DNA of 49,293 nt from a virus. Under the pieces are notes generated by a model. The model was not told the origin of the DNA, searched no databases, and was given only the letters and a program-made list of their open reading frames with translations. Positions 13,474 through 49,293 of the stretch are shown here, one piece after another. How positions within the stretch are numbered: position 1 is the stretch's first letter; each line of letters opens with the position of its first letter. The stretch covers positions 1 to 49,293 of the IMG/VR virus record IMGVR_UViG_3300018875_000066. One strand, 5' to 3'. A program made the translations under genes and the position numbers.

Positions 13474-13476
13474 CGC

Positions 13477-14355: not shown

Positions 14356-14370
14356 GGGAGTATCCGAACG

Positions 14371-14514: not shown

Positions 14515-15941
14515 CAGAAGATCCTCGCCTTGGTTTCCATGTTGCCGCCCATGAGGCTGACATAGACCGGATCGAAGACCCTCAGACGCCACACGCGTCC
14601 GACCTGGGAGCTCTGGCCGCAGTTGAGCACGGTCACGGCCTGGCGGGTGTCGCCTTGCCGTCCCAGGGCCCGTTTGACCGGCGTGCCGAACGTCGCGCCG
14701 CCGTCATCGGACCAGGTGATCTCCACCACGGGATCGGTCTGGATCGGAACGGCGCCGAGCTCGCTGCCGACGCCGACGACGAAGTCGAAATCCGCCCTCC
14801 GGCACTGCGTCGACGCCGGGAACGCCTTGACGGGAGCACTCCACACCTCCCAGGCGAGCGACTCGTCCAGCTCAAGCGCGCGGGTGCCATCGATCTCGAG
14901 CACGTCGGCAGTGAGCGTGTCCTGCATCAGCCAGCGATTGAAGGCCTGGCAGGAGAACGTGGCTCTCCATCGCCCCATGAGATGGGAAGACCTCTGGTGC
15001 CACGCCCCAGTGGTCAGATTGAACTCCCACGTCCACCCCTTGCGCTCGTCTGTAGCGTCGATGGCAGTCAGGCTCCACACCGCCATGTCGCCATCCACAT
15101 AGACCGAGGCGCGCAGCTCCCAGCCCATGCGTTTGGCTTGAAGGATGTCGCGCACCTGGTCCGACTCGGAGATGACCTCCGGCTGATAGCCGTTGAGGCG
15201 CCGCACCGTGCCGTCCGTTGCGACGAAGATCGGGGTTCCCTCCCAGCCGTCCTGCGCTCCCGTGGCGGCGAAGGCGCTCATGAGCCCCACCGGGATCACG
15301 GCCACACGCGCCAGGGGGAAAGGCGAGGATCCGACGTTCTGGAACACCTCGATCGACTGCGAGCCCAGGGCATAGAAGAGCTGGCCCGCCACGAGTCCGC
15401 GTAGGAGCCCGTCCGGGTTGCTCTCGGCCTTGGCATTCGAGAGGGCGTTGATGGCGGTGGTGTTCAGGCCGGTGGCGATGATGAAGCCTGCGGCTGTGGT
15501 GAACAGGAGATAGCCGTCCAGGGAGGCGACCGAATTCGGCTGCCCCACATCCGGATCGGGATAGGTGCTGATCTGGGTCGCGTCGACGGTATAGGCGCCG
15601 GCGCTCGAGACCACCACGACATCGGGCGATGCCGGGTTGGCATTGCGCGCGAAGCTCACGGGGCCGGTGCCGTCGAGATTGTTCAGGAGCGTCGTGGCCG
15701 CGCCCGTGGGATCGATCTTCACAAGCTTGTTGTCGGCGGCGACCAGAAGGTTCACGCCGTCGTAGAAGATGCCCCGCCCCTTGGTCAGCCCGGCAATCGC
15801 CTTGTGGCGCAGCAGGCCGGGCACGCGGCGGTGCTTGATGACGCTGCCTTCCTTGATCGCATAGGCGTTCACAAGGCGGCCCTGACCTTCGGACGGGCGC
15901 GCGCCGGGCCGGCTGGTTACGGGAAACGGGATCGCGACCAT
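14514..15941 (-). CDS. P22 gp10-like packaged-DNA stabilisation/tail hub protein
   Basis: A 475 aa protein; MVAIPFPV at 15941 is the start because it forms a TGATG overlap with the gp4-like gene. The N-terminus (GRLVNAYAIKEG, HRRVPGLLRHKAI), the repeated strand pairs of a beta-propeller type, the LRGLVAGQLFYALGSQSIEVFQNVG motif and the C-terminal strand-rich segment resemble P22 gp10, which with gp4 plugs the portal after packaging and forms the tail hub. Order gp4-like then gp10-like next to a P22-like portal supports this strongly. Confidence 0.75.
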   Translation of the reverse strand: MVAIPFPVTSRPGARPSEGQGRLVNAYAIKEGSVIKHRRVPGLLRHKAIAGLTKGRGIFYDGVNLLVAADNKLVKIDPTGAATTLLNNLDGTGPVSFARNANPASPDVVVVSSAGAYTVDATQISTYPDPDVGQPNSVASLDGYLLFTTAAGFIIATGLNTTAINALSNAKAESNPDGLLRGLVAGQLFYALGSQSIEVFQNVGSSPFPLARVAVIPVGLMSAFAATGAQDGWEGTPIFVATDGTVRRLNGYQPEVISESDQVRDILQAKRMGWELRASVYVDGDMAVWSLTAIDATDERKGWTWEFNLTTGAWHQRSSHLMGRWRATFSCQAFNRWLMQDTLTADVLEIDGTRALELDESLAWEVWSAPVKAFPASTQCRRADFDFVVGVGSELGAVPIQTDPVVEITWSDDGGATFGTPVKRALGRQGDTRQAVTVLNCGQSSQVGRVWRLRVFDPVYVSLMGGNMETKARIF

Positions 15942-16303
15942 CAGAAGTAGTCCGCTTCCGTCGGCTGGTCGCCGCGACCGGAGGGCTGGAACGACCGGAG
16001 AGTGCTCTCGGCGACGTCGGAGAGCATCTGGATGCCCGCGAGGTCCTGCCCCCCTACGCCGTAGCTCGAGGCCGCCCACTTGGCGACGACGGTGGCGAAC
16101 GGCAGAAAGGCCTCCGCCGGCACATCATCCGCTTCGAGATCCGGCACGAGGTAGCAGACGCCCTCCGACTCGCAGATCGCCGCCGTGCCGTCGATGATCG
16201 GCGTCATCGTCTCCATGTCTTCGGCGCTGATCGTCTGCCCGGAGCCGAGGACGCCGAGCACCCGGAGGGCCTGCGCCGCGATCTGCTGCTTGGTGTAGGC
16301 CAT
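15941..16303 (-). CDS. P22 gp4-like head-tail adaptor (tail accessory factor)
   Basis: A 120 aa protein starting MAYTKQQIAAQALRVLGVLG at 16303, where GAGGTG lies six bases upstream; a GTG at 16312 is possible. The all-helical pattern with a conserved N-terminal helix, followed by EDMETMTPIIDGTAAICE and a second helical pair, resembles P22 gp4, the adaptor that binds the portal ring. It is a little shorter than P22 gp4. Context with gp10-like and portal genes agrees. Confidence 0.7.
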   Translation of the reverse strand: MAYTKQQIAAQALRVLGVLGSGQTISAEDMETMTPIIDGTAAICESEGVCYLVPDLEADDVPAEAFLPFATVVAKWAASSYGVGGQDLAGIQMLSDVAESTLRSFQPSGRGDQPTEADYF

Positions 16304-16324
16304 GCCGCTCACCTCAAAGGAGAA

Positions 16325-16343
16325 GCCCCGCGCAGAGCGGGGC
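16325..16343 (-). terminator. Intergenic hairpin, possible weak terminator
   Basis: GCCCCGC (16325-16331) pairs perfectly with GCGGGGC (16337-16343) around a five-base loop. The minus strand continues TTCTCCTTT, an imperfect T-tract. It lies between the coiled-coil gene and the gp4-like gene and may lower expression of downstream genes. Confidence 0.5.
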
Positions 16344-16351
16344 CTCGGGGG

Positions 16352-16795
16352 TTACTTCTTGGCCGTCTTTGGTTCGGAGGCCTTCGCGGAGGCCTGGAGC
16401 TTCGCGATCTCCTCGCGTGCAGCGTCCAACTCGGCGGAAAGACGCTCATTGTCCGCCTTGGCAGACTTGAGCTCGCCGTCGAGGCGGGCAACCTCGTCCT
16501 GCGAGGCCTTCAGCTCGGCGGAAAGACGCTCATGGGCGGCGCGGCCGTCGGTGATGACCTTTTCCAGGCGCTCGATCCGGGTCTTGGCAACCGACAGATC
16601 GCCGTCGTCCTGAGCCTCGGAGCCCTCGATGGGCTTGTCGGTGACCTTGAAGAAGCGGTTGCCCTCAAAGCGCTTCAGGGCGTCCGGCTTGCTCACCGGG
16701 ACGGACTGGCCGGCGCGGAACTTGAAGCCAAACTGCGACGTGACTTCCGGGAACGACGGATCGTCCGCCGGCGGCGTGTAGGTGACATACTTCAT
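16352..16795 (-). CDS. Phage head-region protein with C-terminal coiled coil
   Basis: A 147 aa protein. Residues 1-55 form a compact domain (FGFKFRAGQSVPVSKPDALKR, FEGNRFFKV) and residues 65-135 are a continuous coiled coil (TRIERLEKVITDG, HERLSAELKASQDEVARLDG, LSAELDAAREEIAKLQ) ending in a Lys-rich tail. The N-terminal part resembles small head-completion proteins seen in other phages near the capsid. Specific role unknown. Confidence 0.65.
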   Translation of the reverse strand: MKYVTYTPPADDPSFPEVTSQFGFKFRAGQSVPVSKPDALKRFEGNRFFKVTDKPIEGSEAQDDGDLSVAKTRIERLEKVITDGRAAHERLSAELKASQDEVARLDGELKSAKADNERLSAELDAAREEIAKLQASAKASEPKTAKK

Positions 16796-16853
16796 GTGAG
16801 GAAATCCCCCGTGGAAGGGAGCGGGCAGCAGGAAACGCCGCCCGCCGCGCTCA

Positions 16854-17285
16854 TTAGTCGAGGACGTAGGACACCCACGCCTTCAGCTTGCCGGAAGCCG
16901 CGCCCGTGGCAGGGGCGGTCTTGACGGTGATGCTGATGACCGTGGAGGCCTCGTACTTGTAGAGGATGCCGGTGGTCTCGATCGCATCGTCGACGCCGCT
17001 GGTCTGGCCGACCGTCGAGCCTGCGATGAGACGATCGTCGTCACCGGTGTCGCCCAGGCCCAGGACGAGGGTCGGAGCGCCGTTGGTATCGAGATCGTCG
17101 GCAGCAATGCCGGCACCCACGATGCGAGCGCCGCGCGGGATCGCCAGCATCGGGATCACCTGGTTGAGCGTGAGAGCGGCCGAGAGGCTGTATTCCCCCG
17201 AGGCCACCTTCACGTTGCCGGCCACGCCATGGCCGCCGGCGTCTTCCTTACGAACCGCCTGGTTCGCGTTGAAATGGATGGTCAT
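16854..17285 (-). CDS. Small structural protein after the capsid gene
   Basis: A 143 aa protein. The start at 17285 (MTIHFNANQ) is preferred because GGGAGG is six bases away; the ATG at 17291 directly touches that sequence. The protein is beta-rich with two conserved-looking segments (LTLNQVIPMLAIPRGARIVGAGI and ILYKYEASTVISITV). Position right behind the major capsid gene and the fold pattern fit a head decoration or fibre-like capsid protein, which is an inference. Confidence 0.65.
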   Translation of the reverse strand: MTIHFNANQAVRKEDAGGHGVAGNVKVASGEYSLSAALTLNQVIPMLAIPRGARIVGAGIAADDLDTNGAPTLVLGLGDTGDDDRLIAGSTVGQTSGVDDAIETTGILYKYEASTVISITVKTAPATGAASGKLKAWVSYVLD

Positions 17286-17356
17286 TGCCATCCTCCCTAT
17301 TACGAAGATTGAGGATGGAAGGGCCGTGGCCCTCCCGATGATGTCAGGACGGCCGC

Positions 17357-18475
17357 TTACTCGTTCGGGGCCGCGACGAAGCCGGTGAAGACACCGTGAT
17401 CCTTGGCCGCGCCGTTGGCCTGCGACGGCTGGAAGCGGTTTTTCTCGATGCCGCGCAGCTCGCGGACGGCTACGCCGTTCACGAAGCCGTAGTCCCGGGC
17501 ATCGGTGGCGAACTTCGGATCGTGACCCACCGCGTAGCCGATGGCCTGGGCGCCGCAGAAGAAGAACGGCTCCACGTCGACGCCAGCGGCGCCCGCTCCG
17601 GAGAGCAGGAGCAGCTCGGTGATCTCCGGGATCTCCCGGATGATCACGTTGTCGATCATGTAGTCGCCCGGCTGGAAGAGCGGGTTGAGCACGCCGCGCT
17701 CCATGCCTTGCCGCAGGTCCGCCACCAGCTCTGGGTCGTTGCCGACGTGGTAGAACGAACGGGCACCGACGAACATGACGAAGCACTCGACCATGTTGCC
17801 GCCCTTGCCCGACATCTCCACTTCCTTGACCATCGCGGGACGGATCAGGGGCTTGGCGTTGCGGGCGAGCATGCGCGCCAGCTTCACGATCTTCTTCGAC
17901 AGCTTGTCGTTGGTGGAATCCAGCGTCGCCAGCGCTGTGGCGAAGGTGGCATTGTAGTTCTGCGCCGAGTTGCCGAACAGGACGCGGTCCTGGTTGGTGA
18001 CCAGCCAGGCATTGCGGGCAGCCGCCGAGAGCGGGCTCTCCACGGTGTCCTGAGCGCCGCCCTTGGAGTTCAGCGCCTTGATGATGTCGTTGCGGGTGAT
18101 CTCGGCCATGAGCTGGACGAGGGCCGCCTTGCCGGCATCGAGCAGGTCGATCTCGGTGCGGAACTGGTCATAGTTCGACACCGCCACACCGTCACCGACG
18201 AAGTCGATGGAGATGGGGAAGTTGTAGTTGGCCAGGCCCTGCTCGTTACCGGCAATCGGGGTGGCGCCGCGCTTCCCATTGCCGCCCAGCTTGGCCAGCA
18301 GCGGGATATTCACGGTATCGCCGGCCTCGTTGCGAAGCTCCTGGCGGACATGGATGATTTTGTCGTTGCTCGTGCCCATGAAGGGCTTGAAGCCCGACCC
18401 GCGCACGTACTCGTCGTAGCGCTTCGCCGTCCAGACCTTCTTGGCGGACGCAGAAGCAAGTTCGATGGTAGCCAT
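17357..18475 (-). CDS. Major capsid protein, N4-gp56/DUF4043-like
   Basis: A 372 aa protein. IIHVRQELRNEAGDTVNIPLLAKL, FVGDGVAVSNYDQFRTEIDLLDAGK and FVMFVGARSFYHVGNDPE are typical of the HK97-fold capsid proteins called DUF4043 or N4-gp56 family. The tail ends with MIDNVIIREIPEI and a sheet-rich region, as in that family. The gene follows the scaffold gene by 37 bases, the usual scaffold-capsid order. It forms the head shell. Confidence 0.85.
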   Translation of the reverse strand: MATIELASASAKKVWTAKRYDEYVRGSGFKPFMGTSNDKIIHVRQELRNEAGDTVNIPLLAKLGGNGKRGATPIAGNEQGLANYNFPISIDFVGDGVAVSNYDQFRTEIDLLDAGKAALVQLMAEITRNDIIKALNSKGGAQDTVESPLSAAARNAWLVTNQDRVLFGNSAQNYNATFATALATLDSTNDKLSKKIVKLARMLARNAKPLIRPAMVKEVEMSGKGGNMVECFVMFVGARSFYHVGNDPELVADLRQGMERGVLNPLFQPGDYMIDNVIIREIPEITELLLLSGAGAAGVDVEPFFFCGAQAIGYAVGHDPKFATDARDYGFVNGVAVRELRGIEKNRFQPSQANGAAKDHGVFTGFVAAPNE

Positions 18476-18512
18476 CGGCTATTCCTCGTTTTCAGGGGGT
18501 GGAAAGGGCCAC

Positions 18513-19316
18513 TCAGGAGCCGCCGAAGACGTGCTGGAAGGCTGATTCCGGCACGGTTTCCTTGAAGGCTCCCGCGCTGCCCGGCGCGGTTGCGACCGAG
18601 CGAGGCGGCGTGACAGGTTGGGTAGGCTGTGCGGGGGCAGCAGCTCCGCCTGGAGCGGCTACGACCGGCGCGGCTCCGGGAGCGGTACCGCCGGGAGCAA
18701 GTCCCTGAGCGGCCATGAGCTCCTGATAACGCTTCATCACCCAGGCGTCGGGGTCATCGCCCACGTTCGCCAGAGTGGTTTCACGCTTGTGCCACTTCAT
18801 GATCTCGGCGCCGGGATCGACCGAGCCGATGATCTTTTGCACGAGGACGGGATCACCCTTGTTCAGGAGAGCCTCGTATGCCTCTTCGAAGGCCTTTCCG
18901 TGCTTCTCCGCCGTGGCGTGCAGGTTCGCGTTGAGCATGCGCTCGGTGAACTTGCGCTCCATCTGTGCTGCGAGGTGCGCCTCCCAGGCTTCCGGATCTG
19001 CGAACAGATCGGGACGCTGCTGAGGCTGCTGCTCGAGTTCTTTAAGCTTGCGCTCTGCGGCTTCTCGAGCAGCCTTTTCCGCCTTGAGCTGATCCCGCGT
19101 GTCCAACAGGGCCGTGAGAGGCACATGATGGGACGGCTGCGGCTCGGTGGGAGCGGCAGGGGCAGCGGGGGCTGCAGGCGTCGCCGGAGCGGCAGCCGCG
19201 GGCTCTGCGGGCGCGGAGGGCGCTGCAGGAGCTGACGGTGCGGCCGGTTCGGCGGCAGATGGCGGAGTGAGGTTGGAAGTGTCCTCTTTGAGGAACGAGG
19301 GGGTGTTGTCGTCCAT
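18513..19316 (-). CDS. Phage scaffolding protein candidate
   Basis: A 267 aa protein with a long Ala/Pro-rich N-terminal stretch (residues about 18-62), a charged coiled-coil region (LLDTRDQLKAEKAAREAAERKLKEL), a helical middle (HGKAFEEAYEALLNKGD) and a Pro/Ala-rich linker before the last helix (ESAFQHVFGG). This low-complexity plus coiled-coil plan and the position between portal and capsid genes match scaffolding proteins, which guide capsid assembly and are then lost. Homology is not needed for the call but is not shown either. Confidence 0.75.
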   Translation of the reverse strand: MDDNTPSFLKEDTSNLTPPSAAEPAAPSAPAAPSAPAEPAAAAPATPAAPAAPAAPTEPQPSHHVPLTALLDTRDQLKAEKAAREAAERKLKELEQQPQQRPDLFADPEAWEAHLAAQMERKFTERMLNANLHATAEKHGKAFEEAYEALLNKGDPVLVQKIIGSVDPGAEIMKWHKRETTLANVGDDPDAWVMKRYQELMAAQGLAPGGTAPGAAPVVAAPGGAAAPAQPTQPVTPPRSVATAPGSAGAFKETVPESAFQHVFGGS

Positions 19317-19428
19317 GACCTGTTTCGTCGGTTCTCACGTGATCGCCCGGACCCCGGCGGCAGGGCTCCCGATACGAGGGGAAGCGCTCGGATCGCCCGT
19401 TGAGCCCGGCGGCGGCTTCAAACGACAA

Positions 19429-19446
19429 AGGGCCCCGAAGGGCCCT
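19429..19446 (-). terminator. Intergenic hairpin between portal and scaffold genes
   Basis: AGGGCCC (19429-19435) with GGGCCCT (19440-19446), loop CGAA (TTCG on the minus strand). Only three Ts follow on the minus strand, so it is at most a weak terminator or attenuator within the 151-base gap. Nothing else is seen in this gap. Confidence 0.45.
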
Positions 19447-19467
19447 CTCCCGTGATCTCTGGTCTGG

Positions 19468-21444
19468 TCAGCCCGCGAACTGCGCCATGTGCGCGCCGCC
19501 CGGGACGGAGCCGGGTCCTGCGGGCTGCTGCGGCTGCTGCACCTCGTGCGCCATCTTCACGATCTTGGCCGCGATCTCCTGCGTCTTGGCGCGGGTGTGC
19601 TCGGTCTCGGCCAGCTTGCCGTCGAGCTCGGCCTGCACGACCTCAGGCGGAGGATGCCCGGCGCCGGCCTGCTGCTGGCTCTGCTGCTCGATGAAGTCGA
19701 GGATCTGCTTCTTGTTACGCAGCATCGACGCCATGATGATCGCCTGCGGCGGGATCGGCATGCCGGCCTTGGCCAGCTCCACGAGCTCGGAGAACTGTTC
19801 GGCCACGATGGAGGCGCTCGCCGGCACACGGTCGACGATGAGGTCGACCCCCATCTCGGCAATGCGGTTCTGCATGATGGGCTTGGGCGGTACCGTCTGC
19901 ACCTGGCCCGTGCGGGGGTCGATCACTGGCATGCCGGTCTGAGGATCGAACTGCACCTGCGGGTAGCCGTTGGCGTCCACAACGGGTTCGAACCCCACGA
20001 CCTCGTTGAGCTGGATGAACTTCGGAGCCTCCAGCTCATCCGTCACCCGGATCCACATGGGCTCGGTCCAGAACTGCCGGGCACGGGCCCAGATCTGGCG
20101 GAAAATGCGCAGCATCCAGTCGTTGTGGGCAGAGAAAACCGTGGCGAGCTCGGCGAGACCGGCCTGCTGCTGCGCCAGGATCGCCCGGCCGGACTGGTCT
20201 TCAGTGCCCCTGCCCTGCAAGGCATTGTTCGGTCCGAGTCGATCGAGGAAGGCCTTGGCCTCGGCAAGCAACTCGGCCTGTCCCTGCATCTGCAGGTTCG
20301 TGTCGATGATGCCGATATCCTCGCCCCACGTGGCCGTGCGCGCGATCACGACATCGCCGTCGGGCTTGTTCAGCTCCCGGCGCATCTTCTGCGGGTCCTT
20401 GCCCGAAATCGCGCCCTCCTTCCGGAAGGTCTGCCGGGTGTTGAGCAGGTGCAGCAGCTTGGAGCGGCGGGCGTTCACCTCGTCCTGAGGCGAGCGCTGG
20501 TCCCGGATCAGGCCATACCGGTTGTTGTCGTCGTCGACGTAGCAGGAGACCAGTTCGATCGGGTTGGTAGGCACGCCATCCTCGTTAAGGTAGGCGCTGG
20601 GGCTATCCTCGATCACACCGCCACCCGTAAAGACGGTGCGGTGCCACTGCAGGCCCTCGCGGTAATAGGCTTCGACCACCAGCACGCGCCGGCGCTTCTT
20701 GTCGGCCCAGGTGTGCAGGGGCCGGTCCTCGTAGGAGTCGAACCCGGCGCCGCGGGAGCCGTAGAGGCCACTGTCGTTGAGAGCGGCCTCGACGGGCCCC
20801 TTCGCCTGCTCCCCAAAGAAGGCTATGGCGTCGTCGGCGTCCATCCATTGCGCCAGACCCATGTAGCGGGCGTCGGAGAAGTCGGTCTCGCGCGCATAGG
20901 GGTCGTAGAAGATCGTTTCCCAGCGCAGCTTGCGGATCTTGATCTCGTAGCGAGGCTCCGAGGGCGTCATGGCCGTCGTGCTCATGAGCTGGGCTCGGTT
21001 CGGACCCTTCTGCTCGACCTCCACCATGGCCCCGCCGGTGCCGCGCACGATCATGTCGCGCAGCACGTCGATGCGGGTCTTGGCAAACCGGTTCTTGTCG
21101 GTGACGTAGCGGAGGGTATCGGTCGCGATCTCAGCGGCCTTCTCGTCCTGCGGGGTGCGGGGCCAGGCCTTGGGGCTGGTCTCGGTGTTCTCCTCCACGC
21201 CGCAGATGCTCTCGATCTTCGAGCGCACCAGGTTGTAGGTGATCGGCGGCTGCTTGCGCTTCTTGAGGGTGTTGAGCTCGGCCTGCGTCCACTGCTTGCC
21301 GTGGTAGTAGTTGCTGTCGATCTCGGCTTCCTTGCGCGACTCCTGGGTATTGTCGCGCGCCTCCTCGAACATCTCCTTAAAGCGCGTCAGGCGCGCGTTC
21401 GGATCAGGAGAGCCCGCCTCCTGCTGCTGTGGGTTCATGTCCAT
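19468..21444 (-). CDS. Portal protein, P22-like
   Basis: A 658 aa protein of the size and pattern of the P22-type portal family: N-terminal YYHGKQWTQAELNTLKKRKQ, the PPITYNLVRSKIESICGVE segment, WETIFYDPYARETDFSDARY and a long helical C-terminus with Gln-rich segments (IEQQSQQQAGAGH), where P22 has its barrel. It forms the dodecameric channel through which DNA enters and leaves. Start at 21444 (MDMNPQQQ); it follows TerL by nine bases. Confidence 0.85.
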   Translation of the reverse strand: MDMNPQQQEAGSPDPNARLTRFKEMFEEARDNTQESRKEAEIDSNYYHGKQWTQAELNTLKKRKQPPITYNLVRSKIESICGVEENTETSPKAWPRTPQDEKAAEIATDTLRYVTDKNRFAKTRIDVLRDMIVRGTGGAMVEVEQKGPNRAQLMSTTAMTPSEPRYEIKIRKLRWETIFYDPYARETDFSDARYMGLAQWMDADDAIAFFGEQAKGPVEAALNDSGLYGSRGAGFDSYEDRPLHTWADKKRRRVLVVEAYYREGLQWHRTVFTGGGVIEDSPSAYLNEDGVPTNPIELVSCYVDDDNNRYGLIRDQRSPQDEVNARRSKLLHLLNTRQTFRKEGAISGKDPQKMRRELNKPDGDVVIARTATWGEDIGIIDTNLQMQGQAELLAEAKAFLDRLGPNNALQGRGTEDQSGRAILAQQQAGLAELATVFSAHNDWMLRIFRQIWARARQFWTEPMWIRVTDELEAPKFIQLNEVVGFEPVVDANGYPQVQFDPQTGMPVIDPRTGQVQTVPPKPIMQNRIAEMGVDLIVDRVPASASIVAEQFSELVELAKAGMPIPPQAIIMASMLRNKKQILDFIEQQSQQQAGAGHPPPEVVQAELDGKLAETEHTRAKTQEIAAKIVKMAHEVQQPQQPAGPGSVPGGAHMAQFAG

Positions 21445-21453
21445 GAAGGGTCC

Positions 21454-22923
21454 TTAGAGACGCCAGCTGTCGTCTTCGTCGTCAGTGTCGAAACGGTAGG
21501 TGTCGTCGGGCTGGGGAGCCTTTTCAGGCGGAGCATCGGCCAAGCCCACATCCACCTTGTCGAGGAGCTGGCCGAACAGCCCAAGGGCGTCGACCTGGTC
21601 ATCGTGCTTGCCGGCCGGGAAGGTGGTCAGCTCAGAGATGAAGGGCTCCGTGAAGGCCTTATGCCTTGGCACGTAGAGCCCCCGCATGGAGATCCGGCCT
21701 CGGATGGACTGCGCCCTCACCGCCTTGTCCCCGCGGGTGGGGAAGCTGTGGAGCACCGTCCAGGCCTTGCGCTCGTTGGCCCGCTGGTCCCGGAAGGGTC
21801 CGATGCCGGAGCGGATCTGCCCCAGCTCTTCGGCCGCGTTATCCGGCGCCCATTGCAGCACCAGATCGCACCACGCCTCGATCCACACGTCGGGGCTGGT
21901 CTGCCCGCGCCACAGGTCCAACAGGTACATATCGCCCTGCGGATCGATGCCGATGACGATGTGAACCGTCCAGTCGCCGCCATCGGCCGTCACCGCATAG
22001 TCGGAAGCGATGTAGGTCCGGAGCGTCCCACGAGCCGGGGCCGCGTCGTAGAACCGGAACCAGGCCTTGCGGAAGAAGTCGCCGTCCTCCGGCGCCGGGC
22101 GCTGCTGGTAGAGCGAGGCCCAGGTGCGCGGATCGGCGGTCCTGTGCTTCTGCCTCAGCAGGTCCGCGTAGCCGTATTCGCCCTCCCAGAGCCATTCTCC
22201 GGGCTGGCGGCCCAGCGGGTCGTTAGCCTCGGCGATGGCAGGCAGCGAGATGATCTCGAGCTGCTCGCCCGTTTTGCGGGCCCTCTCGATCCATCGGCCG
22301 GCGAGGTCATCCTCGTGCCAGCGCGTCATCACCAGGGCGCGGCCGCCGCCGGGGATGATGCGGGTGTCGAAGTCGTCGTTGAACCACTCCCAGACCCGAT
22401 TCCGGATCAGGGCGCTCTCGGCGTCCTGACGGGACCGGAACGGATCGTCGATGAGCCCCAGCTTGGCGCGGAAGCCCGCGATGCCCGTGCCGACGCCGGC
22501 GGCGAGGTATTCCTGCCCCCGCGTGGTCATCCAGCGGCCGGCGGCTGCGCTCTCCCCTGAGACGCCATATCCCAGCGTCAGGCTCTGGCTCATGGCCCAG
22601 CCGCGCACCTTGCGGCCGAACCGCTCCGCCAGCTCCGTGGAGTGCGAGGCCGCGATGATGTTCCCGGCATAGGCCTGAGCGAAGTACCAGGCCGGGAAGA
22701 GCTGCGAGGTGTAGGTGCTCTTAGCCGAACCCGGCGGCATGAAGACCAGCAGGTTCGGGATCCTACCCTCTCCGAAGGCCTGCAGCTTGGACGCCAGGAG
22801 CTGGTGGTGCGGCGCGGGCTCGATCCCCGTGGTGCGGCAGAACTCCAGAAACGAGCGCCGGATCGCCCTACGGCGCAGCAGCTCCCTTGCTGCGTCCTGC
22901 TGCGAGAGCAGCGAGTTCGTCAT
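21454..22923 (-). CDS. Terminase large subunit
   Basis: A 489 aa packaging motor. The ATPase domain has Walker A MPPGSAKS (62-69), an IIAASHSTELAERFGRKVR motif, and Walker B LGLIDDP with Asp159 and Asp160. The nuclease domain shows the acidic residues of the RNase H fold: YIASDYAVTADGGD, DMYLLDLWRG, and KHDDQVDALG near residue 455. The enzyme cuts concatemeric DNA and drives it through the portal. The start overlaps the end of the small-subunit gene by 56 bases. Confidence 0.93.
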   Translation of the reverse strand: MTNSLLSQQDAARELLRRRAIRRSFLEFCRTTGIEPAPHHQLLASKLQAFGEGRIPNLLVFMPPGSAKSTYTSQLFPAWYFAQAYAGNIIAASHSTELAERFGRKVRGWAMSQSLTLGYGVSGESAAAGRWMTTRGQEYLAAGVGTGIAGFRAKLGLIDDPFRSRQDAESALIRNRVWEWFNDDFDTRIIPGGGRALVMTRWHEDDLAGRWIERARKTGEQLEIISLPAIAEANDPLGRQPGEWLWEGEYGYADLLRQKHRTADPRTWASLYQQRPAPEDGDFFRKAWFRFYDAAPARGTLRTYIASDYAVTADGGDWTVHIVIGIDPQGDMYLLDLWRGQTSPDVWIEAWCDLVLQWAPDNAAEELGQIRSGIGPFRDQRANERKAWTVLHSFPTRGDKAVRAQSIRGRISMRGLYVPRHKAFTEPFISELTTFPAGKHDDQVDALGLFGQLLDKVDVGLADAPPEKAPQPDDTYRFDTDDEDDSWRL

Positions 22924-23569
22924 CGGAGAGTTCTTCAGCTTTCGTCAGGCCGCCGCTCAGCTCCAGCTTGTCCTTGAACATGCCGAGGTGGCGGCCGATG
23001 TCGACGAGGGCGCCCTTCTTGTCGTGCATCTTGATCGCGAGGCCCTCCTTGGTCTGGCGAACCTCGGAGATGGCGGCGGCCGTGTCGTCATCGATCTCAT
23101 CGGAGGGAACCAGGGCGATGTCCGTATGGGCCCGAAGGGCAATGGTGCCGGTTGGGGCGATGCGGCGGTTGCGTTTCAAGGCCCCGCCATGGGCCTGCCC
23201 TTCCAGCTCCTCATCAATATCGTCCTCGGGGAAATCAGCCTCGCTGCCATCGGTCCGGATGAACACATCCGCCACCTCAGGGGAGCACGGCACCATCACG
23301 GTGGCACCCCATTTCACGGCCTTACGGATGTCCGCGAAGCCGATCTTGGCCAGCTCCTGCAGGACGCGGTCAGCGGTGATCTCGGTGCGCCTGGAGCGGG
23401 CTTCCATGGCCTCCTGGATCGCGGCGGCGATTTCAGGTTTTCTCAGGTTCTCCTCGCCGATGGAGCCTGCCGTCTTCTGGCTGTAGCCCGCCCGGATCGC
23501 CGCCTGGGTGGCGTTCAGATCCACGAGGTATTCCTTGACGAACCTCTGTTGCTTGTCGGTCAGGGCCAT
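22868..23569 (-). CDS. Terminase small subunit (Terminase_2 type)
   Basis: A 233 aa protein starting MALTDKQQRFVKEYLVD, the standard N-terminus of the family; a GTG nine bases upstream is the alternative. ATQAAIRAGYSQKTAGSIGEENLRKPEIAAAI is the helix-turn-helix that binds the packaging site. The middle part is acidic and the C-terminus (LSGGLTKAEELSDDELAALAAG) is the usual end that contacts TerL. It is the first gene of the leftward late module; its promoter must lie in 23570-23715, shared with the divergent moron. Confidence 0.88.
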   Translation of the reverse strand: MALTDKQQRFVKEYLVDLNATQAAIRAGYSQKTAGSIGEENLRKPEIAAAIQEAMEARSRRTEITADRVLQELAKIGFADIRKAVKWGATVMVPCSPEVADVFIRTDGSEADFPEDDIDEELEGQAHGGALKRNRRIAPTGTIALRAHTDIALVPSDEIDDDTAAAISEVRQTKEGLAIKMHDKKGALVDIGRHLGMFKDKLELSGGLTKAEELSDDELAALAAGRSKGAAAP

Positions 23570-23715
23570 GGGTTTCACGAATGATGGAGGCGAGCGAGAC
23601 GCTCAAGCCCGTCTTGGGATTAAGGATAAGCATAAGCGCCCGCAGCTTAGCCCTTGAGGGCGAGACATCCGCCAGTCAAACTGCAACGATGATACCAACC
23701 TTGGTCGGTGCACCC

Positions 23716-32255: not shown

Positions 32256-32496
32256 TTTGCAGTCCCGCAAAATCAGCCGTGCCATAGCTGCCAAGGTGAG
32301 CTCCCTGCGCAACCGGCAGGGAAGAAAGCGGGCGGGCGTCATGAAGGCGCCCGCCCAGGTGCGAACGGCCCTCGTGTGGGGGCTTGCGTACCGAAGCGCC
32401 GCTCGGGGAAGGGATGGAGGAATGAGCCAGAAACCAGCCGTCGGGGCCAAGATGCTCCCGCTCGCCGCGCTCGTTTGTGCGGACGAGGCGGCTCAT
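32242..32496 (-). CDS. Small early phage protein, 84 aa
   Basis: The ATG at 32496 shares its A with the TGA of the Cro-like gene (TGATG) and has GAGGTGG upstream. The first 40 residues (SRLVRTNERGEREHLGPDGWF) look compact; the C-terminus is Arg/His/Ser-rich and of low complexity. No family recognised. The coupling supports a real gene, but the second half could be fortuitous. Confidence 0.45.
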   Translation of the reverse strand: MSRLVRTNERGEREHLGPDGWFLAHSSIPSPSGASVRKPPHEGRSHLGGRLHDARPLSSLPVAQGAHLGSYGTADFAGLQNVDP

Positions 32497-32762
32497 CACG
32501 CCACCTCGGAAGCGGCGGCGCCCAGGCTGGAGGGGCGATGGTCCGCACCAGCTCGCCGCTGGGCAGCCAGACAGATTGCCATGAACTGCTCTGCGGTCAC
32601 TTTGCCACCCGTTGCCTCCTCGACCTGAAGAGCAAGGGTCATGCTGACATTCCGCTCTCCCCGAAGGGGACGGGTGATAGAGGAAGGGGCACAGCCGATG
32701 CGCTCTGCGAGCTTTGAGGCGTTGTCGCCCGTCTCTGAGAAATATTGTTCCAAAGCGTTCAT
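32496..32762 (-). CDS. Cro-like transcriptional regulator
   Basis: An 88 aa protein with an XRE-type helix-turn-helix: NASKLAERIGCAPSSITRPLRGERNVSMTLALQVEEATGGKV, then a short variable tail. It is the first gene of the leftward early operon and is divergent from the CI-like gene at 32881, the classic lambda-like cro/cI arrangement. It probably competes with CI for the operators at 32797-32846 or for the palindrome at 32771-32792, and commits the phage to lytic growth. Confidence 0.8.
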   Translation of the reverse strand: MNALEQYFSETGDNASKLAERIGCAPSSITRPLRGERNVSMTLALQVEEATGGKVTAEQFMAICLAAQRRAGADHRPSSLGAAASEVA

Positions 32763-32880: not shown

Positions 32881-33627
32881 ATGGGCAAAAATGATACGAT
32901 TCAGCCGAATCGAATTCGAGAGGTCCGCGAAGCTCGCGGAATGACCCTGGAGCAGCTCGAAGAGATCTCCGGGTTCTCCACCTCGTACCTCTCGCGCATG
33001 GAGGGCGGGAAAAGGAACGTTTCCCTCAAGAACCTTCAGAGAATTGCGGAGGCGCTTGGGGTCACGGTGCGCGACTTAATCTCCGACGGCGGACAACACT
33101 CCAGGCCAGAGCTACCGTACCTAGGAAGCTCAGTCGAAGAGCTCCCAGCTCATGGCTCCTTCCGCATGGCCAAGGTTGACGGGGAGGTCCAGGCCGGAGC
33201 TTTTCTCGCCCTCGAGGTGTTCGACGACGACCTGGGCGAGGTGATCTCAGCGCCGCGGGACCCGGTCTTCCCCTTCGCCCGGCAGCGGGCCTACCGGGTC
33301 AAGGGCGACTCCATGAACCAAGCCAAGCCCAAGCCGATGAACGAGGGCGACTACATCATCTGCGCCCTCTGGGAGGACCTGGGGATGGAGCCCAAGGACG
33401 GTCTGAACGTGGTGGTCCAGCAGACCACGGCCGACGGCCAGCTCCGGGAGCGCTCCGTCAAGGAGCTGCGGGTCTTTCCGGATCGGGTCGAGTTCCACCC
33501 CCGCTCGAGCAACCCGGCCTACAAGCCCATCGTCGTAAACCGGGACTATCACACGGACGACGGCAAGGAGGTCACCATCGTTGCCCTGGTTCGGTACGTC
33601 TTCGATAACCAGGCGTTGCCGGTGTGA
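32881..33627 (+). CDS. CI/LexA-type prophage repressor
   Basis: A 248 aa protein starting MGKNDTIQ at 32881. Residues 8-68 are an XRE helix-turn-helix (MTLEQLEEISGFSTSYLSRMEGGKRNVSL). The C-terminal domain is of the S24/LexA type with the cleavage site Ala105-Gly106 (GEVQAGAF), nucleophile Ser144 (YRVKGDSM) and general base Lys194 (ERSVKELRVF). This predicts RecA-dependent self-cleavage and SOS induction. It most likely binds the four TTGCC-N5-GGCAA operators and maintains lysogeny. The upstream extension of the frame crosses the operators and is not coding. Confidence 0.9.
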   Translation: MGKNDTIQPNRIREVREARGMTLEQLEEISGFSTSYLSRMEGGKRNVSLKNLQRIAEALGVTVRDLISDGGQHSRPELPYLGSSVEELPAHGSFRMAKVDGEVQAGAFLALEVFDDDLGEVISAPRDPVFPFARQRAYRVKGDSMNQAKPKPMNEGDYIICALWEDLGMEPKDGLNVVVQQTTADGQLRERSVKELRVFPDRVEFHPRSSNPAYKPIVVNRDYHTDDGKEVTIVALVRYVFDNQALPV

Positions 33628-33636
33628 GGATCTAAA

Positions 33637-34743
33637 ATGGCATGGGCGGAACAGGAATATACAAAACAGCAAATTAATGCTGCCGGGAAGAGGATCACCG
33701 CAATCCTGAATATTGATGGTCGGCCCCTAACTAGAGATGAAATCGATGAGTACTTTGCACAAAAGGTTATCGTCGATAACTGGCGCGCCTGCCACGGTTA
33801 TCCTCTCAACGTCCTACAAACAAATTTGCGCAGAGCCGCCCGAAAATTCGATAGCGCGCCGCTTATCGCTCAGCGCACCAAGCGGTTTGCGTCGATCGCT
33901 TTGAAGCTTGGGTTGCGGCCCACAATGAAGCTCACTCAGATGCAGGACATTGGGGGGTGCCGGGCGGTTCTCAGGTCTGTTCAGGCTGTAAGACAGGTTG
34001 ATCAGTTCTACCGGTCTGGAAGCCAGATGAAGCATACGTTGGCCACAAGGGACGACTATATCACTACCCCCAAGCCGACCGGCTATCGAGGAATTCATCT
34101 AGTTTATAGGTATTTTTCGGATAAGCCGGCTGGTGCCAAGTGGAACGGCCTCAAGATCGAGATGCAAATTCGATCACAATATCAGCATGCCTGGGCCACA
34201 GCAGTGGAAACAGTCGGCACTTTCCTAGGGCAGGCGTTGAAATCATCATCTGGCGCAGATGAATGGCTTAGGTTCTTCGCTCTTATGGGCTCTGTAATTG
34301 CCCTGAGGGAAAGGTCGCCTCTCGTACCAGAGACCCCAGCGGTTCGATCAGAGCTGATCGCCGAATTAGATCATCACGCATACACTCTGAATGTTGCTGC
34401 GCGGCTCCAGGCATATAGCGATGCCCTTCAGAAACTAGAACAAGAAACGCGCGATGCTAAGTTCTACCTGTTGAAACTCGATCCAACTTCCAGCCAGTTG
34501 GTAATTACCGGTTTCCGCGCCGATGAGTTTGACCGCGCACAAAAAGCCTACTCTGAAGTTGAACAGCCCCTTGAGGGCAAGATGGGCACTGATGCCGTCC
34601 TAGTATCAGTCGACTCTCTTGCCGCTCTCCAGCGCGCCTATCCTAACTATTTCGCCGATACGCGGGTTTTCGTTGAACTATTACGCCAGGCCCTGAGCGG
34701 CCATCAGCGCAGGATTTTCACCGGAGGCCTCTCGTTTTCATAA
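33637..34743 (+). CDS. RelA/SpoT-domain nucleotide synthetase in the repressor operon
   Basis: A 368 aa protein nine bases behind cI, with GAGGAT before the ATG. The synthetase motifs are present: RTKRFASIALK (80-90), MQDIGGCRAV with Asp104 and Arg109, the G-loop KPTGYRGIH with Tyr150, and EMQIRSQYQHAWA with Glu175. There is no hydrolase (HD) domain. About 110 C-terminal residues (LDPTSSQLVITGF, DAVLVSVDSLAALQRAYPNYF) form an extra domain. Family enzymes make (p)ppGpp or (p)ppApp, or pyrophosphorylate tRNA. Coexpression with the repressor implies activity in the lysogen. The gene is clearly lower in G+C than its neighbours. Confidence 0.8.
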   Translation: MAWAEQEYTKQQINAAGKRITAILNIDGRPLTRDEIDEYFAQKVIVDNWRACHGYPLNVLQTNLRRAARKFDSAPLIAQRTKRFASIALKLGLRPTMKLTQMQDIGGCRAVLRSVQAVRQVDQFYRSGSQMKHTLATRDDYITTPKPTGYRGIHLVYRYFSDKPAGAKWNGLKIEMQIRSQYQHAWATAVETVGTFLGQALKSSSGADEWLRFFALMGSVIALRERSPLVPETPAVRSELIAELDHHAYTLNVAARLQAYSDALQKLEQETRDAKFYLLKLDPTSSQLVITGFRADEFDRAQKAYSEVEQPLEGKMGTDAVLVSVDSLAALQRAYPNYFADTRVFVELLRQALSGHQRRIFTGGLSFS

Positions 34744-34867: not shown

Positions 34868-35194
34868 CTACCCGACAACGGCGGATGGGGAGGTCTTTCT
34901 GCGGGGCGTTCGCTTCTCAGTCGAGCCCGTCCGAACCCAAGCTTCGCACTCTTCAGGAACGCGCCCAAACGCTGCCAGCACGTAGGGTATGACAAAGCGG
35001 CCGTGCCGCCTCTCCTCGGCCCATTCGAAAGCGATGACCCCAGCTTTGCAGGACCTGAACGCCAGCGCTAAATTCGCCGCCTCCGAAGCGCTGGATGCGT
35101 CCAGCGGCATCTCTGGCACGAGCTGCCCATTCAACTCCGTGAAGGTCTGCACGACGTAATAGGAGAGCGCCCCATTCCCCTCTCCCCTGTCCAT
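34868..35194 (-). CDS. Hypothetical protein, 108 aa, coupled to the zinc-ribbon gene
   Basis: Start MDRGEGNGALSYYVVQTFTELNG at 35194, one base behind the stop of the zinc-ribbon gene, with CAGG upstream. The core (ASSASEAANLALAFRSCKAGVIAFEWAE) is compact and alpha/beta in pattern; the C-terminus is basic (KRTPRRKTS). No family recognised. The gap 34744-34867 holds the palindrome GGAGGCCTCC at 34856-34865 and otherwise nothing; both flanking genes converge on it. Confidence 0.55.
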   Translation of the reverse strand: MDRGEGNGALSYYVVQTFTELNGQLVPEMPLDASSASEAANLALAFRSCKAGVIAFEWAEERRHGRFVIPYVLAAFGRVPEECEAWVRTGSTEKRTPRRKTSPSAVVG

Positions 35195-35195
35195 T

Positions 35196-35486
35196 TCAAC
35201 CTGCGTAGCCCTGGGCATCGGTCTCGTCCTTGATGAACACCACATCTCGGTAGCTGGCGTGCTGGCAGCCACACTCCACGCATTCGAAATGAATGCGGTC
35301 GATGACCCCGCTGTCGTAGAAGTCATCCCGGGTGGCTGGATCGTTCGGCTCATCGTAGAGGGTCATCTCCAGCGGGTGCTCATGGCCACAGTCAATGCAC
35401 CTCAGGGATACCTTGAATCGCCGCTCCTGGAGGATTGGCCGAGCCGCGGCACTGCCGCGGGAGGACGGAGGAAGTAAGACAGACAT
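35196..35486 (-). CDS. Small zinc-ribbon protein
   Basis: A 96 aa protein with two pairs of cysteines: RCIDCGHEH and FECVECGCQH, separated by about 35 residues, a typical zinc ribbon. AGGAG lies seven bases upstream of the ATG. It is divergent from the recombination operon and its promoter region contains operators 3 and 4, so it is probably controlled by the repressor. DNA or RNA binding, or use as an anti-host factor, are possible. Confidence 0.65.
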   Translation of the reverse strand: MSVLLPPSSRGSAAARPILQERRFKVSLRCIDCGHEHPLEMTLYDEPNDPATRDDFYDSGVIDRIHFECVECGCQHASYRDVVFIKDETDAQGYAG

Positions 35487-39706: not shown

Positions 39707-40174
39707 ATGACTGCCCGCACAATCATTGGACCTGACCTCGAATTCACAGCCGTAGAGGTTGCCGAAAAGCTCCGCTTGAGCTTGCGCACGCTAGAGACGA
39801 TCCTAGGCTCTGACGCTGCCCGGCCAGTCGACGACAAGAGGTTCCAGTTCCATGTTCGCCGCGGCCGCAAGCGCTTTTGGACCGAAGAGGGCTTCCGATG
39901 CCTGAAACTCGCTATCGAAAGGGAAAGCGCCCCGGGCGGCGTTCTCGCGGGCTCCAGCTCACGGAAAGGGACGGTTATTGGCACGTACACGGGACCGTGC
40001 GCGCCGCAGGACGTTCAATCCGTGTGCGCCGAAGTCTTGGACTTCCCGCTCACGCCGAAACACAGGACGAAGCCGAAGCGCTCATCAACGCGATCCGGGA
40101 CGATGTCACCGCGGAGGCCACCGGGCAGAAGCGCAAAGGTGATGCCGTTGCCATTGCGGCCCGGGCTTATTTGA
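39707..40174 (+). CDS. Excisionase-like helix-turn-helix protein overlapping int
   Basis: The start MTARTIIGPDLEF at 39707 has GAGG upstream. EFTAVEVAEKLRLSLRTLETIL and HVRRGRKRFWTEEGFRCLKLAI give the pattern of a MerR/Xis-type helix-turn-helix that bends attachment-site DNA for excision. The first 65 codons are convincing; the frame continues for a further 90 codons inside the integrase gene (277-base overlap), in a composition that looks less like a protein. The gene probably is translated to the stop, but the tail may be unstructured. Confidence 0.65.
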   Translation: MTARTIIGPDLEFTAVEVAEKLRLSLRTLETILGSDAARPVDDKRFQFHVRRGRKRFWTEEGFRCLKLAIERESAPGGVLAGSSSRKGTVIGTYTGPCAPQDVQSVCAEVLDFPLTPKHRTKPKRSSTRSGTMSPRRPPGRSAKVMPLPLRPGLI

Positions 40175-41166
40175 CGGCGCCACGGGAGCGACCGCTCGCC
40201 CCGTCGGCCATCCGGATCGTCCAGGAGATCACCAGGAAATTCGGCCCGCGGCGCCTGAACGACATTCCGCAGAAGGATTGGACCACCTGGGTGGACGCCC
40301 GCCAAAAGGGCAACAAGGCCGCGACCCGAGAGCGGTTCCTCAATGGGGTGGTCGCTTTCCTCCGCTTTGCCGCCGGGCATCACGGACTCCAGGAGGTGCC
40401 GAAGTTCGTCCGGGACAAGAAGGCCCGGAATCCGATCCGGCGCACCCGCCGGCGGGTCGAGGACCTCAGGCCGGACCTCATCTGGCGGCTCTTCAATGCC
40501 TGCCACATCACCGTCAGGGCCCAGCTCGCTGCTGAGTGGTCGACCGGCGGCCGCGTGTCCTCGATCCTCTATGGCAGCCGGGTCGCGGACCTGATCCTGG
40601 CGCCCGGCCGGGAGCAGATCACCTATCGCAACACGAAGAACGGCAAGGACGTCTCGGCTGCGCTGAGCCCGACGGCGGCGGCGATCCTGCGCGAGTATGT
40701 GGAGTGGCGCCGGAACCTGCACGACCGGGAAGCGCCTTTGTTCCTGACCTACAAGCGCCAGCCCTACGCGGACAACGGCAAGGCCTGGGGAGGGCAGAAC
40801 AAGACCGCCTTCAACGCAGCCAAGCGTCGGGCCCGGCGCGCCATCCTCGAGGAAGCCTTCCAGGAGGCGCGGCGGCTCCGGGCGGCAGGGAATCGGTCCG
40901 GAGCGCTCGAGGTGCTTCTGTCGGCCCGCAACGACGCTCGCCTGATGCGCCGGGTCACTCAGCACTGGTTCCGGCACCTTATGGCGACCCGGATGGCTCA
41001 CCGGGATCTGCGCGGCACCATGGAACAGGGCGGCTGGGACGATCACCGCTCGGTCATGGGCTACGTCCACGACGTGCCGGAACGCCGGCGCTCACTCGTG
41101 TCGGAATTCGACGATTTAGGCACGTTTTTGACACGCGACGAAAAAGGCACGCGGAAAAAGGGTTGA
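39898..41166 (+). CDS. Prophage integrase (tyrosine recombinase)
   Basis: A 422 aa enzyme with a basic N-terminal arm-binding domain (TRYRKGKRPGRRSRGL, HVHGTVRAAGRSIRVRRSLG), a core-binding domain and a catalytic domain with Arg219 (STGGRVSSIL), Lys near 247-250, His356-x-x-Arg359 (QHWFRHLMATR), His383 and the nucleophile Tyr389 (HRSVMGYVHD). The start at 39898 has GAGGG upstream. It ends 30 bases before the tRNA fragment, as expected for an enzyme encoded next to its attachment site. Overlap with the Xis-like gene implies coordinated expression. Confidence 0.92.
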   Translation: MPETRYRKGKRPGRRSRGLQLTERDGYWHVHGTVRAAGRSIRVRRSLGLPAHAETQDEAEALINAIRDDVTAEATGQKRKGDAVAIAARAYLTAPRERPLAPSAIRIVQEITRKFGPRRLNDIPQKDWTTWVDARQKGNKAATRERFLNGVVAFLRFAAGHHGLQEVPKFVRDKKARNPIRRTRRRVEDLRPDLIWRLFNACHITVRAQLAAEWSTGGRVSSILYGSRVADLILAPGREQITYRNTKNGKDVSAALSPTAAAILREYVEWRRNLHDREAPLFLTYKRQPYADNGKAWGGQNKTAFNAAKRRARRAILEEAFQEARRLRAAGNRSGALEVLLSARNDARLMRRVTQHWFRHLMATRMAHRDLRGTMEQGGWDDHRSVMGYVHDVPERRRSLVSEFDDLGTFLTRDEKGTRKKG

Positions 41167-47220: not shown

Positions 47221-49293
47221 GTGGCTTTCAAATTACGATCGATCAAAAGCCGGGTTCTTCTACTGGCTGGCATTGGCTTTGTTGGCGCAAGCGCCATTCT
47301 GACCTTCTCTGGCTCTCTGATCATGATGAGCACCAGCCGAACTGAGTCGGTTTCAGCAGCCCGTACACTGCTCAACCAGTATAGGAGTGTCGTTCAGGAG
47401 GAGATCGGACGAGCCATCCTGACTGCAGGTGTCGCCACTTCGGCCGTGGAAGGCGTTGTCGCGGATCGCAAGCTTGATCGCGATGAACTCGGCGAAGTCA
47501 TGACCAGGATCATTAGAAGCCAACCGGCCCTGGTCGGCATGACCCTGGCCTTTGAACCAAATGCTCTTGACGGACGTGATGCGGAGTACAGGCAGCATCA
47601 ATACTCTGACACAACTGGTCGTTTTGTCCCCTATTTCTTCTGGACGCCTGAGCGCTCGATTGGGATCGAGCGCTTGGTCATGACGAAAGAGGCCGGCATC
47701 GAGAACTGGTACGAGAAGCCCCTGCGGGAAAAGCAGACGCTTATCACGCCGCCGTACATCTATCCGGTGAATGGCAAGGACGTCCTGATGACGACCGTGA
47801 GCGCTGTTGTGAAGCGGGGAAGTGACGGGATCGGCATCGTCACAGCCGATCTGGCTCTGAACAAGATTGCCGAAATCATCGGCGGTCTGAAGCCCTTTGG
47901 TGAGGGATCTGCAGCTCTGGTCGGATCCGGAGGGCTGTGGGTTGCTCACAAGGACAACAATCTTCTCGGCAAGCCGGCAGAGGATAAACTGCTAACTGAA
48001 CTGGCCGGCAAGATCGATGCGGCTGGATTTGCCGATACGACCGTAACCGGCCCCTCTGGCGTCGAACTCTACCGAGCTGTGATGTCGATCGGCTTCCCAG
48101 GAGTGAAGGAGACCTGGCTTCTCTCTGTCTCTGTTCCGGCTGATGCGATGATTGCCGGCGCGCTGGAGGCTCGGCAACTCATGCTGCTGGTCGCCGCGGG
48201 TCTACTCGCGCTGGCTCTTGCCGGCGCATGGCTGGCCGCCCGGTCCTTGGCTGACCCGATCGCCCGGATGACAGCGACCATGAAGGTCCTCGCGGACGGC
48301 AACACCAGTGTTGAGGTCACGGACAAGGATCGTTCCGACGAGATTGGCGGTATGGCTGCGGCCGTGCAGGTGTTCAAGGACGCGCTGATTGCCAAGAAGC
48401 AGGCTGATGAGGCAGCAGCTCTCGAGGCTGACGCCAAGATGCGTCGTGCGGAGCTGCTGGACCAGATCACGCGGCGCTTCGAGAGCAACGTGTCGGCCCT
48501 GACGCAGGGTCTGTCCTCGGCTGCCACCGAGATGGAGGCCACCGCCCAGACCATGACGGCGGTCGCCTCCCAGACCACCCAGCAGTCGGTCACCGTCTCG
48601 TCTGCCGCCCAGCAGACCTCAGCCAACGTGCAGACCGTGGCGGCGGCCACCGAGGAGCTGTCCATCTCCATCCGGGAGATCGCCTCCCAGGTGGCGCAGT
48701 CCTCGCAGATTGCCGACCGGGCCGTGCAGGGCGCGCGCCGCACCGACGCGGCCGTGCAGGACCTGGCCTCCACGGCCAGCCGCATCGGCGACGTGGTGCA
48801 GCTGATCAACACCATTGCCGGCCAGACCAACCTGCTGGCGCTGAACGCCACCATCGAGGCGGCGCGGGCGGGCGAGGCCGGCAAGGGCTTTGCCGTGGTG
48901 GCCACGGAAGTGAAGGAGCTGGCCTCCCAGACCGCCAAGGCCACCGAGGAGATCTCGGCCCAGATCGGCTCGGTGCAGCAGGCCACGCAGCAGACGGTGG
49001 CGGCCATTCAGGAGATCGCCCGCACGATCACCGAGATGAGCCAGATCTCCACCTCGATTGCCGCCGCCATGGAGGAGCAGGGGGCGGCCACGGCCGAGAT
49101 CGCCCGCAACGTGCAGGAGGCGGCGCGTGGCACGGAGCAGGTAACCGGCAATATCGACGATGTTCGTAAGGGCGCGGGAGAGACAGGAGCGGCCGCTTCG
49201 CAGGTGCTCAGCTCTGCTCAGGAACTCGCTCGCCATTCCAGCACCTTGGGGAGGGAGGTCGATGACTTCCTGTCTGGCGTCAAGGCTGCATAA
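47221..49293 (+). CDS. Methyl-accepting chemotaxis protein
   Basis: A 690 aa receptor that ends at the last base of the window. GTG start at 47221. First TM at about residues 12-35; periplasmic dCache-type sensor domain at about 45-310 ([35 protein letters not shown]); second TM at 318-338; HAMP domain ([18 protein letters not shown]) to about 390; and the MCP signalling domain with the hairpin tip ([44 protein letters not shown]). It senses an extracellular ligand and controls CheA. Host gene. Confidence 0.92.

What the first reader, a model, noticed from the sequence alone, without database searches (positions are those of the whole stretch)
33637..34743. RelA/SpoT-type synthetase placed in the prophage repressor operon
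The sequence shows intact synthetase motifs (Asp104, Tyr150, Glu175) without a hydrolase domain, an own C-terminal domain of about 110 residues, low G+C compared with neighbours, and a nine-base distance to cI. Established: prophage-encoded synthetases such as CapRel (phage SJ46) and Phrann gp29 act in anti-phage defence or superinfection exclusion, and toxSAS enzymes modify nucleotides or tRNA. Inference: this is a lysogen-expressed defence gene, with its C-terminal domain as sensor or neutralising domain. The C-terminal domain does not look like the zinc-finger domain of CapRel.
Basis: partly seen in the sequence, partly recalled or inferred. Interest (0 to 1): 0.78.

Follow-up and report, generated by a model that had tools for sequence, protein, structure and literature searches.

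The report
CapRel phage-defence gene behind prophage repressor
A dormant virus in a bacterial genome carries, right behind its repressor gene, a member of the already known CapRel family: a toxin fused to its own off-switch and predicted to shut down protein synthesis when a rival phage infects.

Summary
The ORF is real: 33637-34743 (+), 368 aa, 9 bases after cI, GC 52% (GC3 0.55, against 0.82 in cI). It is a fused CapRel. It matches solved CapRel-SJ46 by sequence (E 1.8e-43, residues 43-350) and by fold (top three PDB hits), and PADLOC PDC-S33 over its full length (1e-114). It keeps the G-loop Tyr (Y150), the adenine-site arginines (R80, R109) and the autoinhibitory YXXY motif (Y335-P-N-Y338). 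Residues that set trigger specificity in SJ46 are not kept, so the trigger is unknown. In a tree it lies apart from housekeeping Rel. The gene is cargo: sister phages with 63-66% identical cI lack it. Among 47 phages with related cI and a common right-hand neighbour, this post-cI slot is empty in 9 and over 600 bases long, with diverse cargo, in 35, including a second, phylogenetically separate CapRel and a BstA. Verdict: a new member of a known defence family, in a post-repressor slot of the kind already known for rexAB and bstA. Function and trigger are untested here.

The parts
33637..34743 (+). capRel: fused toxSAS toxin-antitoxin gene, 368 aa
   Evidence: ORF; PADLOC PDC-S33 1.1e-114; PHROG 4773 1.2e-92; PDB 7ZTB/9ERV 1.8e-43
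33772..34326 (+). synthetase (toxSYNTH) domain, about residues 46-230, with R80, D104, R109, Y150, E175
   Evidence: Pfam RelA_SpoT 79-188; residue map on CapRel-SJ46; AlphaFold2 model. Outer limits are approximate
34345..34440 (+). connecting (anchor) helices, residues 237-268
   Evidence: AlphaFold2 model; variable in the family, mean entropy 2.8 bits over residues 231-272
34462..34608 (+). pseudo-zinc-finger sensor/antitoxin domain, strands 276-282, 287-293, 319-324 and helix 295-312
   Evidence: AlphaFold2 model; fold match to CapRel
34639..34650 (+). YXXY autoinhibitory motif, Y335-P336-N337-Y338
   Evidence: maps to Y352/Y355 of CapRel-SJ46; kept in most of 60 relatives
32881..33627 (+). 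cI-type repressor, 248 aa: HTH_3 plus Peptidase_S24, with LexA-like A105-G106, S144 and K194
   Evidence: Pfam; alignment of four cI proteins
32496..32762 (-). divergent small HTH protein, Cro-like
   Evidence: Pfam HTH_3/Cro weak matches, PHROG 35 repressor 2.3e-8
34868..35353 (-). convergent ORF that marks the right edge of the cargo slot; directly behind cI in sister phages
   Evidence: ORFs in L099 and L100; nucleotide homology resumes at 35004-35008

Best explanation
The gene encodes a fused CapRel toxin-antitoxin protein that the prophage carries as cargo right behind cI and most likely expresses with cI in the lysogen. In the resting cell the C-terminal pseudo-zinc-finger folds back and places its YXXY motif in the ATP site of the synthetase domain, so the enzyme is off. 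When another phage infects, a phage protein (or a phage-host complex) binds the variable C-terminal region and frees the active site, and the enzyme transfers pyrophosphate to tRNA 3' ends, stopping translation and the infecting phage. Shown here: family membership, conserved catalytic and autoinhibitory residues, predicted fold, cargo position, empty site in sister phages. Inferred from published CapRel-SJ46 and CapRel-Ebc work: autoinhibition, tRNA pyrophosphorylation, trigger binding, protection. Unknown: the trigger, and how the prophage avoids setting the protein off during its own induction.
For: Sequence match to CapRel over residues 43-350; top fold hits 9ERV and 7ZTB, E 7.8e-23 to 1.3e-21; full-length PADLOC and PHROG family matches; all mapped catalytic and interface residues kept except A341 to Ser324; YXXY and strand 8 as conserved as the catalytic domain while the rest of the sensor varies; position inside the CapRel tree apart from long Rel proteins; acquired composition; insertion relative to sister phages; second independent CapRel and a BstA in the same slot of related phages. 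Mechanism from PMC9712102.
Against: No activity, expression or protection data. Identity to CapRel-SJ46 is only about 33%, and the residues that bind the SECphi27 capsid protein (L280, L307) are not kept, so the trigger need not be a capsid protein. Full-length TM-scores to CapRel are moderate (0.66-0.72) with 8-9 A rmsd, which would fit a different domain orientation but was not resolved.
Confidence: 0.8

Rival explanations
1. A fused toxSAS of the CapRel fold that makes toxic (pp)pApp or (p)ppGpp instead of modifying tRNA: still a defence toxin, with another chemistry.
For: The synthetase fold is shared; weaker matches to (p)ppGpp-making SAS enzymes YjbM and RelP; FaRel-type toxSAS make (pp)pApp (PMC11782079 abstract).
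Against: The closest family by far, by sequence and by fold, is CapRel, described as a tRNA pyrophosphokinase.
Confidence: 0.1
2. A prophage regulator: an alarmone synthetase that tunes lysogeny or couples prophage induction to starvation, with no role against other phages.
For: It lies directly behind cI, so it could act in the lysogeny switch.
Against: Sister phages do without it; the slot holds unrelated genes in other phages; S24 repressors are found upstream of few CapRel relatives (3 of 50 upstream ORFs); the autoinhibition lock is kept.
Confidence: 0.06
3. A decaying or silent passenger gene without function in this prophage.
For: Its composition is foreign to the phage (GC3 0.55).
Against: The frame is open over the full family length, all family-invariant residues are present, and a plausible ribosome site overlaps the cI stop.
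Confidence: 0.04

Closest known systems
CapRel-SJ46 (Salmonella phage SJ46; PDB 7ZTB, 9ERV)
   Same: One fused protein with synthetase domain, anchor helices, cysteine-free pseudo-ZFD and YXXY motif; same active-site and interface residues; carried by a temperate phage.
   Different: About 33% identity; capsid-binding residues L280/L307 not kept. In SJ46 the gene follows a maturation control gene and faces lxc in a P1-like phage, not a cI.
CapRel-Ebc (Enterobacter chengduensis)
   Same: Fused CapRel with a sensing C-terminal domain (PMC9712102).
   Different: Sensed trigger is T7 Gp0.4 in complex with FtsZ (PMC13423816); sequence not compared here.
PhRel/ATphRel of mycobacterial phage Phrann (gp29/gp30)
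   Same: Prophage-encoded toxSAS; its toxin and antitoxin are related to the two halves of CapRel and block superinfection (PMC9712102).
   Different: Two separate proteins, here fused. Not among the phage-collection matches at E 1e-5.
BstA of prophage BTP1, and lambda rexAB (post-cI defence genes)
   Same: Same strategy of place: a defence gene downstream of the prophage repressor (PMC8585504). A BstA occupies the same slot in a related phage, L123.
   Different: Unrelated proteins and mechanisms; BstA has a DNA self-immunity element (aba), none was found or expected here.

Membership tests
Fused CapRel toxSAS | Synthetase domain with G-loop tyrosine and adenine-site arginines, no hydrolase domain | tested here: met
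   Y150, R80, R109; Pfam RelA_SpoT only
Fused CapRel toxSAS | C-terminal pseudo-zinc-finger (three strands and a helix, no zinc cysteines) with anchor helices | tested here: met
   AlphaFold2 model, pLDDT 89.4; fold hits 7ZTB/9ERV; no Cys after residue 108 in the translation
Fused CapRel toxSAS | YXXY autoinhibitory motif and conserved interface residues | tested here: met
   Y335/Y338, A78, V321, L322, A334 kept; A341 is Ser324
Fused CapRel toxSAS | Groups with CapRel and not with housekeeping Rel in a tree | tested here: met
   Tree of 70 rows; small alarmone synthetases such as RelQ/RelP were not in the tree
Fused CapRel toxSAS | Non-toxic until triggered by a phage protein; pyrophosphorylates tRNA; protects against phages | not testable with these tools
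   needs expression, biochemistry and phage challenge
Fused CapRel toxSAS | Recognition of a major capsid protein (as SJ46 does) | tested here: inconclusive
   SJ46 L280/L307 not kept, but this region varies within the family and other triggers are known
Housekeeping RelA/SpoT/Rel | Long protein with hydrolase and regulatory domains, in the Rel clade | tested here: not met
   368 aa; no such domains; four long Rel proteins apart at 100/100
Post-cI prophage defence cargo (bstA/rexAB type position) | Directly downstream of the repressor on the same strand and absent from related phages at that place | tested here: met
   9-base gap; empty in L099 and L100
Post-cI prophage defence cargo (bstA/rexAB type position) | Transcribed with the repressor in the lysogen | not testable with these tools
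   spacing and strand are consistent; no RNA data

The most novel reading that the evidence does not exclude
The position directly behind this S24-type cI family is a dedicated swap-in slot for lysogen-expressed defence genes. CapRel entered it at least twice from separate lineages, a BstA and other known or candidate defence proteins also use it, and many of its unmatched cargo families are undescribed defence genes.
Probability: 0.45. Interest if true: 0.55.

Novelty: new member of a known kind. Interest (0 to 1): 0.36.

Why it matters
It extends CapRel, characterised in enterobacterial systems, to a prophage of a high-GC host (probably an alphaproteobacterium) with a sensor domain whose trigger cannot be guessed from known members, so it is a clean case for testing how CapRel sensors diverge. 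It also points to a compact, addressable place (between cI and its convergent neighbour) in which to look for further prophage defence genes by comparing occupied with empty sites.

Tried and rejected
A single-protein scan of IMG/VR with the window protein gave no relatives; only the alignment query did. A DNA search of phage records with the 5 kb around the gene found nothing. No tRNA genes in the window. The promoter/terminator scan was at chance level. No direct repeats of 8 bases or more flank the cassette. The idea that CapRel genes usually sit next to a repressor was rejected: Peptidase_S24 matched 3 of 50 upstream ORFs, one of them the selected L035 case (gene calls in GC-rich loci are noisy). 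A PADLOC control on 63 non-slot ORF families also gave matches, the listed ones DNA methyltransferases, but only the first 25 of 110 families are shown, so enrichment of defence genes in the slot is not quantified. Host identification is only approximate: short 73-78% matches of a flanking chemotaxis gene to Azospirillum, Skermanella and relatives.

Full report
Observation. The ORF at 33637-34743 (+) is intact, 368 aa, with an ATG 9 bases after the cI stop. Its N-terminus (MAWAEQEY) lines up with the starts of relatives, which supports the start. Pfam gives only RelA_SpoT (79-188). GC is 0.522 and GC3 0.55, against GC3 0.82 in cI and 0.90 in the 28625-30085 gene, which marks it as acquired.

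Identity. By sequence the best solved relatives are 7ZTB and 9ERV (E 1.8e-43 over residues 43-350); the fold search names these as the Salmonella tRNA pyrophosphokinase CapRel and CapRel bound to Bas11 Gp54. PADLOC's only match is PDC-S33, full length, E 1.1e-114, and PHROG 4773 matches at 1.2e-92. The phage collection holds SJ46 itself at 33% identity.

Residues. Mapped on CapRel-SJ46, G-loop Y155 is Y150, adenine-site R79/R116 are R80/R109, YXXY Y352/Y355 are Y335/Y338, and interface A77, V338, L339, A351 are A78, V321, L322, A334. Only A341 differs (Ser324). In SJ46, substitutions at A77, R116, V338, L339, A341, A351, Y352 or Y355 made the protein toxic without infection, and Y155 is the active-site tyrosine (PMC9712102). 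D104, R109, Y150, E175, H184 and W186 are invariant in the 60-protein alignment. SJ46 L280 and L307, needed to bind the SECphi27 capsid protein, have no counterpart or are Gln.

Structure. AlphaFold2 with a 60-sequence alignment gives mean pLDDT 89.4: synthetase domain, connecting helices, strands 276-282 and 287-293, helix 295-312, strand 319-324, the YXXY turn and a C-terminal helix 343-354. This is the pseudo-ZFD plus anchor layout described for SJ46.

Conservation. Mean column entropy is 1.75 bits in the catalytic domain, 1.57 in strand 8 plus YXXY, and 2.6-2.8 in the connecting helices, the rest of the sensor and the C-terminal helix: a constant lock within a variable sensor.

Phylogeny. 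In a synthetase-domain tree the window groups with two IMG/VR proteins (L019, L020; 100/97) inside the CapRel set that contains SJ46; four long housekeeping Rel proteins are apart at 100/100. One very divergent outgroup row (L109, branch length 10) is uninformative, and small alarmone synthetases were not included.

Position. Sister phages L099 and L100 (cI 64-65% identical in the scan, 63-66% in the alignment) match the window on both sides of the gene but lack it: homology stops at 33623-33629 and resumes at 35004-35008. In L100 the convergent gene ends 19 bases from cI; in the window the corresponding ORF end lies 1,240 bases away. L035 carries a 44% identical CapRel 3 bases behind a related cI; in the tree it lies in a different subclade from the window protein, so the two most likely entered this position separately.

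Slot. A wider cI search gave 54 analysable loci. In 47 a common convergent small gene marks the right edge: the slot is empty in 9 (abutting or overlapping by 4 bases), 221-243 bases in 3, and over 600 bases in 35. One large ORF from each of 34 occupied slots falls into 24 sequence families (the CapRel-bearing L125/L035 contig left out). Cargo matches include BstA (L123, 1.6e-115), a PD-T4-6/mad6-type kinase (L124, 8e-53), DUF3800 proteins (L127, L138, L154; L127 also PDC-M04A 1e-32), AlbA_2/HATPase proteins (L128, L130), PDC-M06B (L153), PDC-M24B (L121), and weaker PDC-M41A (L141) and PDC-S42 (L162). A control set of non-slot genes also gave PADLOC matches, so enrichment is suggested, not measured. 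PDC models are candidate families and weak evidence on their own. L110 and L112 in this scan are the same contigs as L099 and L100. The window and its sisters have a different right-hand neighbour from these 47, so the slot is the same with respect to cI but not proven to be one continuous locus type.

Precedent. A post-repressor position for defence genes is known: bstA lies downstream of cI in BTP1 and of repressors in many homologues, and lambda has rexAB there (PMC8585504). CapRel triggers differ between members: capsid protein and Gp54 for SJ46 (PMC9712102, PMC11578894), Gp0.4-FtsZ for Ebc (PMC13423816). No paper in the held library contains 'CapRel', 'prophage' and 'cI repressor' together, weak evidence that this placement is undescribed.

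Mechanism and open points. The best reading is an autoinhibited tRNA pyrophosphokinase expressed with cI and released by an infecting phage's protein. Family, residues, fold and cargo position are shown; expression, chemistry, trigger and protection are inferred. Because this cI keeps LexA-like residues (A105-G106, S144, K194), its loss on induction would also end new CapRel synthesis if they share a promoter, which might help the prophage escape its own defence; that is inference.

Noticed in passing
L113-L163, directly downstream of cI: A hypervariable cargo slot between an S24-type cI and a convergent small gene (FIIVPP family): empty in 9 of 47 phages, over 600 bases with diverse cargo in 35, including a BstA and several unmatched families.
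   Followed up: partly
window 32881-33627, L099 4980-5717, L100 4983-5738: The cI proteins of the window and its sisters share the S24 half closely but have different DNA-binding N-terminal halves, as expected for different immunity types.
   Followed up: no
L007, L008, L010, L011, L012: Very similar CapRel genes appear in contigs assigned to several DPANN archaea and a Dojkabacteria bin; either a mobile gene crossing these lineages or a binning error.
   Followed up: no
L016 757-1765: The small Proteus plasmid p3M-2B (with qnrD1) carries a CapRel relative whose reading frame is disrupted near the C-terminal end: the match comes in two pieces and the annotated CDS lacks the YXXY region.
   Followed up: no
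window 47221-49293: A methyl-accepting chemotaxis protein gene at the right end, beyond the integrase (about 40003-41166), indicates host DNA, so the record is an integrated prophage with flank.
   Followed up: partly
window 9590-23578, - strand: Head and lysis module: terminase subunits, portal, major head protein (17357-18475), head closure, DNA ejection and endolysin families.
   Followed up: no
L032, L035, L039, L041, L059, L075, L077, L078, L081: CapRel relatives with a changed YXXY motif (YPNF, YPNL, YPAF or FPNY), so one tyrosine can be replaced.
   Followed up: no
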